Origin: Planctomycetia bacterium
GTDB lineage: Bacteria > Planctomycetota > Planctomycetia > Gemmatales > Gemmataceae
Length of the DNA: 33,542 bases
NCBI GenBank assembly: GCA_005808665.1
Contig: SYLG01000087.1
Span: forward strand, 1 to 33,542
Reading direction: 5' to 3'
Below the pieces are notes generated by a model, which ran no database searches, was not told where the DNA came from, and saw nothing but the letters and a program-made list of their open reading frames with translations. This document shows, in pieces, positions 8,166 through 25,187 of this stretch. How positions within the stretch are numbered: the first letter of the stretch is position 1; each line of letters starts with the position of its first letter. The position numbers and the translations under genes were made by a program.

Positions 8166-9008
8166 ATGTCCATTTCTTGTGCGGTTACCATTGCCCTTGC
8201 TCCTGAAGTAAAAAGTGGTCCCTTTGTTTTTCATTCCGAAGTCCAAAATCTTGACGCAATGTTTGCCATGGTACGCGCCATGGGGTTTCCGGCAGTCGAA
8301 ATTTTCCCCCGCACTCCGGAAGACATTGATCCCCTCATCCTTGGCCCAATGTTACGAAAACACAACCTGCAGTTGGCAGCCGTTGGCACCGGAGCAGGAT
8401 GGGTGATCCACAAACTAAGGCTTACAGATCCTGATCCAAAAACGAGGAAGAAAGCCGTTGAATTCGTGGCGGAAATTCTCCGCCGAGCCGCCAAACTGAA
8501 CGCCCCGGTTATCATCGGCTCCATGCAGGGAAAGGCCGATCCCGATGGCAAAGAGGCTACCCTGGAACGACTGAGAGAATCGGTCATACTGCTTGCCAGG
8601 GAGGCTCAAGCCTTGGGCCAACGGTTGTTACTGGAACCTCTCAACCGGTATGAAACCGACTTGCTCAATAAAGTTGGGGATGTTTGTTTATTGGCGGAAC
8701 AAACGAACGAACCGGCGGTTTCCGTCCTCGCTGATTTGTTTCACATGAACATCGAAGAGAGGGACATTCCCCAAGCCCTCCTTGCTTGTGGAAACAGGTT
8801 GGGTCATGTCCATTTGGCGGACAGCAACCGTCAAGCGGCCGGGCTTGGCCACACCCCCATGGAACCGATCTTTGCAACCTTGAGGGACATGGGCTATCAA
8901 GGTTTTGTGAGTGCAGAAGTATTTCCCAAACCGGATAGCGATACGGCGGCCAAGGCTACCCTTTTGGCTTGGCAATCCATGAGCCTTGTCAACCCAAAAG
9001 TCCTTTGA
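8166..9008 (+). CDS. Sugar phosphate isomerase/epimerase-like TIM-barrel protein
   Basis: The 280-residue protein matches the xylose-isomerase-like/AP-endonuclease-2 TIM-barrel family. The metal and substrate residues of D-tagatose-3-epimerase-type enzymes can be followed in order: Glu in LLLEPLNRYETD, Asp in SVLADLFHMN, His in LGHVHLADSNR, and Glu in FVSAEVFPKP. The repeated strand-helix pattern and the length agree with a complete single-domain cytoplasmic enzyme that interconverts ketoses or inositol derivatives. The precise sugar cannot be told. No clear ribosome-binding site precedes ATG 8166, so the transcript may be leaderless or the site weak. The gene is not in an obvious operon. Confidence 0.85.
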   Translation: MSISCAVTIALAPEVKSGPFVFHSEVQNLDAMFAMVRAMGFPAVEIFPRTPEDIDPLILGPMLRKHNLQLAAVGTGAGWVIHKLRLTDPDPKTRKKAVEFVAEILRRAAKLNAPVIIGSMQGKADPDGKEATLERLRESVILLAREAQALGQRLLLEPLNRYETDLLNKVGDVCLLAEQTNEPAVSVLADLFHMNIEERDIPQALLACGNRLGHVHLADSNRQAAGLGHTPMEPIFATLRDMGYQGFVSAEVFPKPDSDTAAKATLLAWQSMSLVNPKVL

Positions 9009-9036
9009 ACCTCCCGTCGGTTGGCAAAGCCATTGG

Positions 9037-9753
9037 CTATTTTCCCCGAAGGACCGCCACCGGGGCATCGGTATCCTTGAGAAGCTTTTGGGCTTGTTCG
9101 GGATGTTGATCCAGCCACCAGCTCAGGGCCGCAAAAAAGTATTGTAATTGTCCGACATAGTTTTCGGCGAGTTTGGGTGCTGAGGATCCCAGGAGCTTGG
9201 TTCCCAGTTGAATCGCCTTGGAATCGGTCTTCAGGTAAAAGCGATATTGGTGACGAATTGCCGGGTTGCCTTCCGTGTCTTTGCCCGGCACAAAATGGAC
9301 AAGAACGACGGCCTCAAAATCGACTACGGGAAAAAATGGTGCGGGCCGACCCTTGCCTTCACATAGCCAAACCCAGGCATTCTTGCCTTTTGCCACGGCT
9401 TCCCACACGACTTGGCCACGGCCGGGCTCTTCGTAATGGAACCGCCCCTTTTCATCCACCTCAGGGATCGTGCAATGAGCACCCAGGGATTGCCAAATCC
9501 GGAACGCATCCTTGGGATGGCCTAGCAACCAGCGGTATACCTCGGGAGGGGCCTGAAACGCCTCGGCGGGCCCATGGGCAATCACCGTAGGTTGGTCAAT
9601 AACCGCCCTAACCCGATCTCGATGGATCGGGGCCATGATCGAATACGGGATCCCAGCAGGCTCGGTGGAAACCTTTGCCGTTTCAGCGGCAAAAACTCCC
9701 AATGAGGTCAAGCCAATTGCCAGGATCACCAACGCAGCTTTGCGCCGGTGCAT
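9037..9753 (-). CDS. Secreted protein of unknown function
   Basis: The 238-residue protein starts at ATG 9753, preceded by GAGG 8 nt upstream; the frame extends to a TTG at 9792 without support. It has a clear signal peptide (RRKAALVILAIGLTSLGVFA, cleavage near AAETA). The mature part has a segment typical of a small alpha/beta domain: HGPAEAFQAPPEVYRWLLGHP, then VVWEAVAKGKNAWVWLCEG and YRFYLKTDSKAIQLGTKLLG. I recognise no catalytic motif. It is convergent with the epimerase gene (29-nt gap) and divergent from the HEAT-repeat gene. Confidence 0.7.
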   Translation of the reverse strand: MHRRKAALVILAIGLTSLGVFAAETAKVSTEPAGIPYSIMAPIHRDRVRAVIDQPTVIAHGPAEAFQAPPEVYRWLLGHPKDAFRIWQSLGAHCTIPEVDEKGRFHYEEPGRGQVVWEAVAKGKNAWVWLCEGKGRPAPFFPVVDFEAVVLVHFVPGKDTEGNPAIRHQYRFYLKTDSKAIQLGTKLLGSSAPKLAENYVGQLQYFFAALSWWLDQHPEQAQKLLKDTDAPVAVLRGK

Positions 9754-9974
9754 CAATGGAACCTCGTGGGCCCCCCCGGATCGGGATTCCAAGGGTGGTC
9801 GTTTTCATCATCGAAATCCGGGAGGGGGGATCATGAGGGATTTTCGGGTTGGTCTTGTGGTTAGGAAAATAAGGGGCTTAAACTAGCCGATGGAACCGGG
9901 GTATCCAGGAATCCTTTGGCTCTCTTCCCCATTTTGGTGGTTTTTTGATCCAACAACCCGACGGGCCCTTTACC

Positions 9975-21255: not shown

Positions 21256-22503
21256 TTAATTAGGTAAAGGTCGACCATCGGGTCGATCTGGGGCAGGACG
21301 GCGTTCCCCACGGGGGGGAGCATCCGCTTCGGGACGACGACCATCGGGACCATCAGGACGGCGATCCCCACGGGGGGGAGCATCTGCTTCAGGCCGACGA
21401 CCATCCGGGCCATCGGGACGGCGTTCCCCACGGGGAGGAGCATCCGCTTCGGGACGACGACCATCCGGGCCATCAGGACGGCGTTCCCCACGAGGAGGAG
21501 CAATCCGGTCATCACCCGGTCCCCCCGGTCCACCAAATCCAGGACGACCACCCCCGGGTCCCCCCGGTCCACCAACGCCTGGTCGGCCACCGGGTCCACC
21601 AGGACCACCGGGTCCTCCCGGTCCACGGCCAATCGGACCATTTTCCCGTATTTCTTTGAGGTGATTGCGTTGCTCTGCAGTAAGGATTTTTTCGAGCTTG
21701 GCGGTCGTCTCCTTTTGAAGGTCATCCATCTGTTTTCTTTGTTCGTCACTTAGCCCAAGGATCTGCCCCAAAAACGGTGGGAAAATCTGGCCGGGACCAC
21801 CGGCGGGCATTCTGCCGCCACCGCCCACACCAGGGAAACCTCCCCGGACACCTGGTCCTCCAGGACCTCGTCCCGGTCCCGCACCAGGCTGACCAGGGAA
21901 CCCTTCACCTCGAGGCCCAGCCCCCTCCCGACCCGGTTCCCTTCCCTGTCCATTACGGCCCGGAGCCCTTTCGCCCGGTTGTCCAGGAGCTCCCTCTCGT
22001 CCCGGTCCACCCGCTGGTCGTTCCGGGCCATCCCGCCCCGGTCCAGCGGTTGGGTGCCCCGGGAACCCTTCGCGTCCTGGTTCTGTTCCATCACGGCCAG
22101 GTCCCCTTTCGCCCCTTGGTCCGGGAGCCCCATCCCTTCCCGGTCCATCACGACCCGGGGCACCATCCCCACCACGGCCACCCTGAGGACCGAGAATCGC
22201 CGCTTCCTGGGCTTTCAAAGCCGTGAGCTCTTCTTTGGTAACTTTGCCATCCTTGTTGGCGTCGGCCCGGTTGAAGGCTCGAAGCAACCCTTCTGGAACA
22301 CTCTCCCGGTTGATGTTTCCTTCTTTGTCCTTTTCCAGGGCAGAAAGGCGAGCGGAAGCGGTTTGACCTCCTTGAATGGGGCGAGCCCCTTCCGGAGGGC
22401 GGTCGGGGGCCCTATCTCCCCGCGGAGGTTGGGCCAGGGCGAAAGAGGCCGAGAATACGCCCATTATCACCCACCCAGATCTTGCAAATCGAAACATTGT
22501 CAT
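21256..22503 (-). CDS. Secreted EF-hand, collagen-like protein with tandem repeats
   Basis: The 415-residue protein has a signal peptide (SGWVIMGVFSASFALA) and two EF-hand-type segments: a degenerate one (LEKDKEGNINRESV) and a good one (ADANKDGKVTKEEL). A long Gly-Pro-rich, Arg/Asp-rich region of collagen-like character follows (about residues 105-235). Next is a helical segment resembling Spy/LTxxQ-type proteins (LGLSDEQRKQMDDLQKET, LTAEQRNHLKEI), then a second Gly-rich stretch. The C terminus is a 20-residue tandem repeat (PPRGERRPDGPDGRRPEADA). It lies 12 nt after the thioredoxin-PDZ selenoprotein gene and is the last gene of that operon. AGGAAAGGG precedes the start; ATG 22497 is an alternative. 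Confidence 0.8.
   Translation of the reverse strand: MTMFRFARSGWVIMGVFSASFALAQPPRGDRAPDRPPEGARPIQGGQTASARLSALEKDKEGNINRESVPEGLLRAFNRADANKDGKVTKEELTALKAQEAAILGPQGGRGGDGAPGRDGPGRDGAPGPRGERGPGRDGTEPGREGFPGHPTAGPGRDGPERPAGGPGREGAPGQPGERAPGRNGQGREPGREGAGPRGEGFPGQPGAGPGRGPGGPGVRGGFPGVGGGGRMPAGGPGQIFPPFLGQILGLSDEQRKQMDDLQKETTAKLEKILTAEQRNHLKEIRENGPIGRGPGGPGGPGGPGGRPGVGGPGGPGGGRPGFGGPGGPGDDRIAPPRGERRPDGPDGRRPEADAPPRGERRPDGPDGRRPEADAPPRGDRRPDGPDGRRPEADAPPRGERRPAPDRPDGRPLPN
21285..21500 (-). repeat. 60-nt tandem coding repeat, about 3.5 copies
   Basis: Units of exactly 60 nt (for example 21301-21360, 21361-21420, 21421-21480) encode the 20-residue C-terminal repeat of the EF-hand/collagen-like protein. 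Copies differ by a few bases only, so copy number may vary between strains. Confidence 0.9.
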
Positions 22504-22515
22504 TACCCTTTCCTG

Positions 22516-23784
22516 TTAGTTGGCAAGAGGCACTGGCACAATCACGCTCCGGCCCATCCGGTTCACGCGAACCCGCACCGTTTCCCCCACCAAAAATTCA
22601 CGCTCCACAAAACCAGTCAAATCCGCCGATTCGAAAACAAGAGTTTTCCCCTCGATTCCAACCACGACATCCTTTGGTTCAAATCCAAGGTCCACCAACC
22701 GGGGCGAAAGCTTGGCCGCAAGGCGAAAAGCCATCAGCTTGGGCGACAGTCCCAACCCCGTTTTCTCATCCTTGGTCAAGTCCTTCCCCGGAAGGGAAAA
22801 CCTCGGAATCATCCGCCGCATGGAGGTGCGCCAAGTGATGTCGCCCTGCCTCCACCCTTCGGTCAATTCCAGAGAGGCCTCCTGGTCCTTGCCAGATCGC
22901 CTAAAGCTTAATGTAATCAATCCCTGCCGAGGGGCACGGTCCAAAGCGGTTTGAGTGTCGGCAAAACCATGAATGGGGATATCTTCAATCTGGCGAAGGC
23001 GATCCCCGATTCGGAGCCCGGCTTTGCCTGCGGCGGATCCTTTGCCAACGGCTTCCACAAGATCCGGATTGTCCACGCCAAGCTTGATGCCGATGTTTTC
23101 GGGTAAGGGATAGCGCCAAACCTGGTCCCTGTCCCATTCTTCCCTGGCCACAAGACGGCGGTTCAATTCTTCCCTGATTTGGTGGCAGTGCATACAGCCC
23201 TTGAATTTCGTGCCCAAATCATGGATGAAAAGGGGCCCGCCCGGCTGTCGTTTGGCAACCCGATCCTTTTCGTTTTGGTGGGTATAAAGCACCGAGGTCA
23301 TCGTTTTTCTCAATCCCTCAAGCGATTGGCGGCTGTCGGGGCCTTCCGCATCGCGGCCCCCATAACGGGCATAGATCCGGTCGTTGGCATCCATGAAAAA
23401 CACCATCATGGTCAGGTCAAAATCAAACTCAAACAGGTTGAGGTCGTCCTGATCTATGCGCGACAATCGTACGCGCACAAATTGGTCCGCTTCCCTTTTG
23501 ATCTTTTCCAGACGAACAACCTGCCCGTCAAATTCATGGCAAGCCGTTCAGGGAATGCAGCGGATCACCACCATTAAAGGCAGGCCGCTTTTCTTCGCCA
23601 GGGCTTTGGCTTCCTGATAGTTGGCGTGCCAACCATATTTCGCTCCGCTCTCGTCTCGTCCTCGCTGGGCCAAAACCCAAGGGGAGGTAACCGTCCAAGC
23701 CCCATAAGCGCAATAGGCAGAAACCGCAACCAAGCTAATCCGTATCCAGGGTACCTGGTGAAAAAGGCCATCCCACGAAAGCAT
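22516..23784 (-). CDS. Membrane-anchored thioredoxin-PDZ selenoprotein with CxxU (TGA at 23550-23548 read as Sec)
   Basis: ATG 23784 follows AAGGGGAC. A single TGA at codon 79 interrupts a frame that otherwise runs to 22516 (422 residues). Residues 14-30 form a signal anchor (RISLVAVSAYCAYGAW). The thioredoxin-like domain follows: ANYQEAKALAKKSGLPLMVVIRC, then IP-TGA-TACHEFDGQVV. The TGA thus takes the second position of a C76-I-P-U79 motif, with a further Cys four residues on (U-T-A-C-H). After it come LFEFDFDLTMMVFFMDAND (the second thioredoxin strand region) and LGTKFKGCMHCHQIRE with a C-x2-C-H haem- or metal-like site. Two PDZ domains follow (about 170-240 and 305-400; VGKGSAAGKAGLRIGDRL, LVDLGFEPKDVVVGI). 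It sits 23 nt after the EF-hand selenoprotein gene. Confidence 0.82.
23507..23532 (-). promoter_or_regulatory. Candidate bacterial SECIS element, thioredoxin-PDZ gene
   Basis: On the minus strand GACGGGC (23529-23523) pairs with GTTCGTC (23517-23511) using two G-U pairs. Past one bulged T (23510), three more pairs extend the stem. The apical loop is AGGUU (23522-23518), starting 25 nt after the TGA. A G at the loop top and a bulged U in the stem are features of known bacterial SECIS hairpins. Confidence 0.55.
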
Positions 23785-23807
23785 TCTTGTCCCCTTTGAA
23801 GTTTCTT

Positions 23808-25187
23808 TTACGGTCTTGAGGAAGGTGTTATTTTCGCAGCTGGGTGTCGGGCCCTGGCCCGGTTTTCCTGTAAATCGGTGACAGGAATGGCAGTTTCCCA
23901 AAATGCCCCTGCCTCAAAACCTGCAGTCAAGTGACCACGAAAGTTGCGGGCGGTGGCTTGAAACCCCGCCGCACCAAGGGCCAGCGTGTCTGCCAGTTTT
24001 CCACCTTTGTCTCCTGGATCCAAACGGGCCAATATCCGCCCGGATAGGCCAAAGGGATCTGCTTGAACCACGGCCATGGCCGGGACCTTTCCGCCGTCAA
24101 GATGCAAAAGTTTACCCATTTCAGAAGCGTTGCCCTGACAAAGAACAAAACGACCTTGCCAGGGAGAATCAAAAAACAGGTCGGTCATGGCGGCCTCAAA
24201 CCCTGGGCCTGCGGCAGGTCCAAGAACAACCAAGGGAAGATTATCACACGCTGCCACATTGATCGCCAACCTCAGGTTGGCAAGGGCAGGTGATGTTTTC
24301 AATCGCCCGGGGGTTTCCTTTGTGGTTTGTTTTGCGGAAATCAGACGCATGGCTTCGGCCATTCGAACCGAGCTGCCAAACACCCGTTCTGGCCCCCGGG
24401 AAATTGGGGAAAGGGGAGTTTTTCCATCGCTTTTGAGCAGCGCAAAGGTGGAGTTTTCCATTTGTCCACTACGGCCTTGGTAGAGGCCAAGGAGGTAGTC
24501 CCGTTCCTTGGCACTTTCATAGGTGGTGGGGCGAATGGCGACAAATGGGCGTGATGCCAGGATCACCTCTACCGTGGACAGGAAACTCCTGTCTGCTTCC
24601 TGTTTTCCCGGTCACCAAACCCCAGGTACGCCTCCACAGCTGGGAGCCGCTGACATGAGCAGGATGGGTTTCCCGGTCTGTTTGGCCTCGGCGAGTCCTG
24701 CCTCCAGGTCGGTGTACCAAGCGATGGCATCCGGGATATTGACTCCCTTGGCAGCACCCTGTTTAGGAGATCCTTTTTCAGATGGATCGGGTTTTTCAAA
24801 GGGTGGCCTTGTTCCAGGTCCCTCTTTTCCATCTTCCGGACCACCCTTGCCGTCGGGGGGGCCTTTCTTGCCAAAACCCTTTTTCCCCTCTTTTTTGCCT
24901 TCATAGCCCTCTTTGCCCAAGCCAAGCCTCATTCTCCTCGGCATCATCTCCTCGCGGCTCAACACACCATCTTTGTTTTTGTCGAGTTTTTTCAACGATT
25001 CAGTGGCTTGTTTGAGTTCTTCCGGGGAAATTTGGCCATCTTTGTCCAAATCAAGGGCTTCGACCAATGGGTTGATGGGAAAACCGCCAGGTCCCATCGG
25101 GGGCCCACCAAAGGGTGGCTGGGCCAGGATCCAACTCCCTCCGGCCATCAAAAGGGAAATCAAGGTCCATTTGGTACTACGATTCAT
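23808..25187 (-). CDS. Secreted EF-hand thioredoxin-like selenoprotein (TGA at 24614-24612 read as Sec)
   Basis: The frame runs from ATG 25187 to 23808 with a single in-frame TGA at codon 192 (459 residues). A signal peptide (WTLISLLMAGGSWILA) is followed by two EF-hands, ALDLDKDGQISPEEL and KLDKNKDGVLSREEM, then a Lys/Gly/Pro-rich linker. A thioredoxin-like domain begins near residue 155: AEAKQTGKPILLMSAAPSCGG, VPGVW-TGA-PGKQEADRSFL, VILASRPFVAIRPTTYES. The W-U-P-G-K segment aligns with W-C-G-P-C/K of thioredoxins, placing Sec at the nucleophile position with no resolving Cys in CxxC; C184 lies eight residues upstream. A second thioredoxin-like region may follow (DSPWQGRFVLCQGNASEMGKLL). It is the first gene of a three-gene operon with the thioredoxin-PDZ selenoprotein and the EF-hand/collagen-like protein. 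Confidence 0.82.
24577..24593 (-). promoter_or_regulatory. Candidate bacterial SECIS element, EF-hand selenoprotein gene
   Basis: GACAGGA (24593-24587) and TCCTGTC (24583-24577) form a perfect 7-bp stem capped by GUU (24586-24584). The loop starts 25 nt after the TGA and its first base is G. This is the cleanest of the three hairpins and lies within coding sequence, as bacterial SECIS elements must. Confidence 0.7.

What the first reader, a model, noticed from the sequence alone, without database searches (positions are those of the whole stretch)
22516..23784. Thioredoxin-PDZ membrane selenoprotein with C-I-P-U motif
Two open frames on either side of a TGA are in phase and together make one thioredoxin domain followed by two PDZ domains. 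The TGA is the fourth position of C-I-P-U, with another Cys three residues on. A candidate SECIS with AGGUU loop and bulged U lies 25 nt downstream. PDZ domains suggest docking to or sensing of exported proteins.
Basis: partly seen in the sequence, partly recalled or inferred. Interest (0 to 1): 0.85.

Follow-up and report, generated by a model that had tools for sequence, protein, structure and literature searches.

The report
Known Trx7/PDZ selenoprotein, overlooked selenoprotein neighbour
The stop codon in this planctomycete gene is almost certainly read as selenocysteine, giving an exported redox protein of an already catalogued family, and the next gene upstream looks like a second selenoprotein of a family missing from the catalogues I could check.

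Summary
On the minus strand, 22516-23784 reads as one 422-residue protein across an in-frame TGA (codon 79, C-I-P-U, Cys82): thioredoxin fold, then two PDZ domains. It is NCBIfam NF041199, "Trx7/PDZ domain-containing (seleno)protein" (388 bits, cut-off 300), listed as a predicted selenoprotein in reviews of 2022 and 2026, so the headline is already known.

New support: the genome has SelA, SelB, SelD and tRNA-Sec. Homologues carry U or C at codon 79, nothing else. All 17 Sec-type genomes tested have selA; none of 13 CxxC-type genomes does. The hairpin (loop AGGUU, 25 nt after UGA) is nearly invariant in Sec genes and absent from Cys genes. No bulged U is needed.

Its relatives (41 of 294 planctomycete genomes) were Sec in all 20 genes read, with no Cys form seen, no NCBIfam model and no entry in the review's 119-family table.

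Likely function: periplasmic selenol/thiol-disulfide oxidoreductase docking substrates through PDZ domains (inference).

The parts
22516..23784 (-). Trx7/PDZ selenoprotein gene, 422 residues with U79 (P0001)
23791..23797 (-). ribosome-binding-site-like AAAGGGG before the ATG
   Evidence: read from the sequence
23548..23550 (-). UGA codon 79, decoded as Sec (C76-I-P-U79, C82 three residues on)
23511..23529 (-). SECIS-like hairpin GACGGGC-AGGUU-GUUCGUC, loop 25 nt after UGA
23266..23637 (-). thioredoxin-fold domain, residues 50-173
   Evidence: 3f9u_A, Z 13.4
23182..23196 (-). C-M-H-C-H, residues 197-201, invariant CxHCH, candidate c-type haem attachment site
22837..23124 (-). PDZ domain 1, about residues 221-316
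22522..22812 (-). PDZ domain 2, about residues 325-421
   Evidence: structure comparison; not called by Pfam on its own
23808..25187 (-). upstream gene: EF-hands plus thioredoxin fold, 459 residues with U192 (P0002); ends 23 nt before the Trx7/PDZ start
24612..24614 (-). UGA codon 192 of the upstream gene (C184-GGVPGVW-U192-PGK)
24577..24593 (-). SECIS-like hairpin of the upstream gene, GACAGG-AGUUU-CCUGUC
21256..22503 (-). downstream EF-hand protein with G/P/R-rich repeats, 12 nt after the stop; possible third gene of the operon
   Evidence: an EF-hand reading frame also follows the gene in close homologues

Best explanation
It is a selenocysteine-containing member of the Trx7/PDZ family. Shown by comparison: UGA 79 is decoded as Sec by the cell's own SelA, SelB, SelD and tRNA-Sec, directed by a hairpin whose loop starts 25 nt downstream. 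Inferred: the product is exported and works as a periplasmic selenol/thiol-disulfide oxidoreductase. Sec79 pairs with Cys76 as the CxxU redox centre, and Cys82 (absent in two homologues) is an auxiliary or resolving thiol. The tandem HtrA-type PDZ domains hold C-termini or unfolded segments of exported proteins next to the active site, so the protein is built like an HtrA scaffold in which a selenothioredoxin takes the place of the protease. The invariant CxHCH between thioredoxin and PDZ may carry a covalent haem that exchanges electrons with the active site; this step is the least certain (about 0.4).
For: NF041199 at 388 bits, cut-off 300. SelA, SelB, SelD and tRNA-Sec(UCA) in the genome. 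In 66 homologous segments codon 79 is U (52) or C (14) and nothing else. selA is over its cut-off in 17 of 17 Sec-form genomes and 0 of 13 CxxC-form genomes. Hairpin: nearly identical letters in Sec genes of planctomycete and verrucomicrobial records, not formed in Cys genes; Val codons inside it GTT 31/31 and GTC 30/31, against 19% and 38% elsewhere in the same genes; 87.7% of cells pair, against 27-48% when slid. Thioredoxin domain resembles the C-terminal domain of an exported cytochrome c biogenesis-related protein (3f9u, Z 13.4) and both PDZ domains resemble HtrA PDZ domains. CxHCH in 65 of 66 segments; a ResB-like gene in the genome.
Against: No experiment. UGA plus 48 nt folded alone prefers another stem. 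The N-terminus is only moderately hydrophobic. No Pfam cytochrome domain is recognised around CxHCH, no distal haem ligand was identified, and the position of the motif relative to the active site was not measured. Covariation in the hairpin is modest because it hardly varies.
Confidence: 0.75

Rival explanations
1. Redox sensor rather than enzyme: the CxxU pair (with or without haem) reports periplasmic oxidation, and the PDZ domains pass the signal to a partner, as DegS-type PDZ domains pass on misfolding signals.
For: PDZ1 is structurally close to DegS PDZ; no catalytic domain other than thioredoxin is found.
Against: Keeping Sec, including UxxU forms, fits catalysis better than sensing; no conserved regulator was noticed next to the gene.
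Confidence: 0.15
2. Thiol reductase dedicated to cytochrome c maturation or similar assembly: the thioredoxin domain keeps apocytochrome or metal-site thiols reduced.
For: The closest structure to the thioredoxin domain is a cytochrome c biogenesis-related protein (3f9u); planctomycete genomes carry c-type cytochrome domains (general knowledge).
Against: The gene is not beside cytochrome assembly genes in the window; many DsbD-like domains would give the same structural match.
Confidence: 0.08
3. The TGA is a true stop: a 78-residue fragment plus a separate downstream PDZ gene, or a pseudogene.
For: Standard gene calling gives a separate 320-aa frame from GTG 23478.
Against: U/C exchange at the codon, the conserved hairpin, selA correlation, and an intact paralogue with UGA at the same codon.
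Confidence: 0.01
4. UGA is read as another amino acid (changed genetic code or near-cognate read-through) rather than Sec.
For: The frame is open under any sense reading of UGA.
Against: Homologues place Cys, never Trp, at this position, and tRNA-Sec with SelA, SelB and SelD is present.
Confidence: 0.01

Closest known systems
NCBIfam NF041199 trx7_PDZ_seleno, Trx7/PDZ domain-containing (seleno)protein (listed in PMC13188914; 'PDZ domain-containing protein, Thioredoxin_7, CxxU' in PMC9312934; apparently the 'putative secreted serine protease MucD' selenoprotein of PMC2398784)
   Same: Whole-length match over the curated cut-off, CxxU, SECIS-like element
   Different: Nothing essential for this gene. 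The review lists one Sec; some homologues have UxxU. The CxHCH motif was not mentioned in the passages I read.
HtrA/DegP/DegQ proteases (MucD)
   Same: Tandem PDZ domains with sequence and fold similarity
   Different: No trypsin-like protease domain; a thioredoxin domain stands in its place
MamE/MamP magnetochrome proteins (PMC3971196)
   Same: Layout: catalytic domain (MamE) and/or PDZ with short CXXCH motifs; MamP PDZ is among the structural matches
   Different: Similarity found only in the PDZ part; thioredoxin instead of protease; single CxHCH; haem not shown
DsbD gamma / DsbH-like thioredoxins
   Same: Fold of the redox domain
   Different: Sec at the second position of CxxU, fusion to PDZ
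VPGUxxT thioredoxin-like selenoproteins NF041382/NF041383 (closest to the upstream gene)
   Same: Weak similarity over the first part of the thioredoxin domain (best E 0.0036); Sec close to a VPG
   Different: The motif is C-x7-U with G-x-W-U-P-G-K; 14.2 bits against a cut-off of 275

Membership tests
NF041199 Trx7/PDZ (seleno)protein | Curated HMM score, 300 bits | tested here: met
   388.4 bits over residues 51-419
NF041199 Trx7/PDZ (seleno)protein | CxxU (or CxxC) in the thioredoxin domain | tested here: met
   C76-I-P-U79
Selenoprotein | In-frame UGA aligned with Cys in homologues | tested here: met
   U in 52 and C in 14 of 66 segments
Selenoprotein | SECIS just downstream of UGA: small apical loop with a guanosine | tested here: met
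   definition from PMC1088965
Selenoprotein | selA, selB, selC, selD in the genome | tested here: met
Selenoprotein | Selenium in the protein | not testable with these tools
   needs labelling or mass spectrometry
HtrA/DegP (MucD) serine protease | Trypsin-like protease domain | tested here: not met
   Only the PDZ part matches, 35.8 bits against a cut-off of 416.2; no protease domain in Pfam
c-type cytochrome | CxxCH motif | tested here: met
   C-x-H-C-H in 65 of 66 segments
c-type cytochrome | Recognised cytochrome c domain | tested here: inconclusive
   No convincing Pfam cytochrome match; short haem motifs may have no model
c-type cytochrome | Covalent haem | not testable with these tools
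   needs haem stain and spectra
VPGUxxT selenoproteins (considered for the upstream gene) | Curated HMM score, 275 bits for type 2 | tested here: not met
   14.2 bits

The most novel reading that the evidence does not exclude
The operon makes two exported selenoproteins. The first is a selenothioredoxin with a covalent haem on an HtrA-like PDZ scaffold, a redox counterpart of MamE-type proteins. The second, the EF-hand/thioredoxin protein with C-x7-U and G-x-W-U-P-G-K, belongs to an undescribed selenoprotein family for which no Cys form was found, so that searches relying on Sec/Cys pairs would have missed it.
Probability: 0.35. Interest if true: 0.65.

Novelty: new member of a known kind. Interest (0 to 1): 0.42.

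Why it matters
For the gene in question little is new: the family was already catalogued, though I found no experimental test of it. The comparison adds a checkable claim, that a Sec thioredoxin, a possible haem and an HtrA-type PDZ pair sit in one exported protein, with single-Sec, double-Sec and all-Cys natural variants to compare. The neighbour matters more: a widespread planctomycete selenoprotein family apparently without Cys relatives would be invisible to Sec/Cys-pair methods and is cut in two by ordinary gene calling.

Tried and rejected
Wrong strand: the plus-strand reading of the coordinates gives no recognisable protein. True stop or pseudogene: rejected. Other genetic code: rejected. 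HtrA/MucD protease: rejected for lack of the protease domain. Rfam on the window gave only tRNAs. Conserved pairing with the upstream gene: not found; no other fetched locus of the upstream family holds a Trx7/PDZ gene, though the flanks are only up to about 1.5 kb. Neighbour clustering used raw reading frames, so its clusters include spurious antisense frames. Papers: none holds selenoprotein, thioredoxin, PDZ and planctomycetes together. PMC4807772 reports planctomycete selenoproteins, but its table S9 is a supplement I could not read, so the upstream family may be listed there under another name. Plasmid search for the upstream protein: no match.

Full report
Observation. Minus strand 22516-23784 reads as a 422-residue protein with one UGA, codon 79 at 23548-23550, in RCIPUTAC. 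The plus-strand reading is meaningless. Thioredoxin_7 and PDZ pass Pfam cut-offs; the model (mean pLDDT 86.7) shows a thioredoxin fold at 50-173 and two PDZ domains.

Family. NF041199, Trx7/PDZ domain-containing (seleno)protein, matches at 388 bits against a cut-off of 300. A 2026 review lists NF041199 as a predicted selenoprotein, CxxU, one Sec (PMC13188914). A 2022 review lists 'PDZ domain-containing protein', Thioredoxin_7, CxxU (PMC9312934). The 2008 source describes a CxxU 'putative secreted serine protease MucD' (PMC2398784), which I take to be the same family because MucD is a PDZ protease and the reviews cite that work; this last link is inference. So the selenoprotein claim is known, though by prediction.

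Sec decoding. The genome holds SelA and SelB close together on contig C22, SelD with its own UGA and a tRNA-Sec with anticodon UCA on C155. A paralogue with CEPU and its own UGA is on C115. Across 66 homologous segments (a few genes appear twice, from two collections), codon 79 is U in 52 and C in 14; position 76 is C or U, giving CxxU, UxxU and CxxC types; Cys82 is missing in two, L079 and L085. Of 30 genomes, selA passes its cut-off in all 17 with the Sec form and in none of 13 with the CxxC form. Those 13 are all from the window's class, and the 17 are from other classes, so part of this could be shared ancestry; but the window's own genome is a Sec-form genome with selA within that class.

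SECIS. Most Sec genes share GACGGGC-AGGUU-GUCCGUC; one clade has an AGUU-loop version at the same place, with the loop again 25 nt after UGA. Genes from planctomycete and verrucomicrobial records keep the same letters, including synonymous positions: Val codons GTT 31/31 and GTC 30/31, against 19% and 38% elsewhere in those genes. In 22 Sec sequences 87.7% of cells pair, against 27-48% when slid, and three pairs show a change on both sides. Cys genes lack the hairpin. The window's copy has one C-to-U change that keeps a G-U pair. Folded with the UGA on its own, this copy prefers another stem; I expect the decoding ribosome to cover those upstream bases, but that is inference.

The missed motif. 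Between thioredoxin and PDZ1 lies C-x-H-C-H, present in 65 of 66 segments; the exception, L093, is cut off by the end of its contig stretch. This is the pattern of a covalent c-type haem site. The genome has a ResB-like gene. No Pfam cytochrome domain is recognised. MamE has the order protease, CXXCH domain, PDZ (PMC3971196), a similar layout, but nothing here shows that the haem-like part is related. I put haem at about 0.4.

Mechanism. Shown: a Sec-type gene with SECIS and a Trx, CxHCH, PDZ, PDZ layout. Inferred: export, catalysis at CxxU, docking of substrates by PDZ, optional haem electron transfer.

The neighbour. The gene at 23808-25187, ending 23 nt before the Trx7/PDZ start, reads through its own UGA (24612-24614) as EF-hands plus a thioredoxin fold with C184-GGVPGVW-U192-PGK. 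Table 11 gene calling splits it in two. Relatives occur in 41 of 294 planctomycete genomes; nearly all matches that span the motif have exactly one UGA, and those without a TGA are partial matches outside the motif. In 20 of 20 genes read, U is at the same place and C184 is invariant; 17 of 20 keep all six stem pairs of a hairpin with the loop 24 nt after UGA, with A-U for G-C swaps. selA is over its cut-off in 37 of 39 carriers; G280 has a fragment at a contig end, and G082 has none. The model places U192 at the start of the first helix of the fold, the thioredoxin active-site position, with DsbD/DsbH-like matches and a second thioredoxin-like domain. NCBIfam has no model over its cut-off and the 119-family table has no matching entry. 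Classical searches demanded Cys homologues (PMC1088965), which this family seems to lack. I judge it a real selenoprotein family, and undescribed with probability about 0.75.

Verdict. The finding is right but, as stated, it is a new member of a catalogued family. The haem-like motif, the double-Sec forms and above all the neighbouring gene raise the interest.

Noticed in passing
window 23808-25187 (-), UGA at 24612-24614, hairpin 24577-24593: Upstream gene is a second selenoprotein candidate (EF-hands plus thioredoxin fold). Relatives in 41 of 294 planctomycete genomes, Sec in all 20 genes read, no Cys form seen, no NCBIfam model, not in the 119-family table.
   Followed up: partly
window 23182-23196 (-) and homologues: Invariant C-x-H-C-H between the thioredoxin and PDZ domains, a candidate covalent haem site that no Pfam domain covers.
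   Followed up: partly
L007, L010, L013, L016, L017, L020, L022, L030, L034, L079, L083, L091, L095, L096: Homologues with two Sec residues (UxxU) in the thioredoxin motif, where the 2026 review lists one Sec for the family.
   Followed up: partly
L038 about 8836-9933 (contig C115 of the same genome): Paralogue with CEPU and its own UGA; it follows a small exported-looking gene whose relatives precede several homologues (L072-L075, L078-L080).
   Followed up: partly
L062 (contig C155:15072-16007): SelD of this genome has an in-frame TGA, so it is itself probably a selenoprotein.
   Followed up: no
   Followed up: no
window 21256-22503 (-): EF-hand protein with long G/P/R/D-rich, collagen-like low-complexity repeats directly downstream of the selenoprotein gene.
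   Followed up: no
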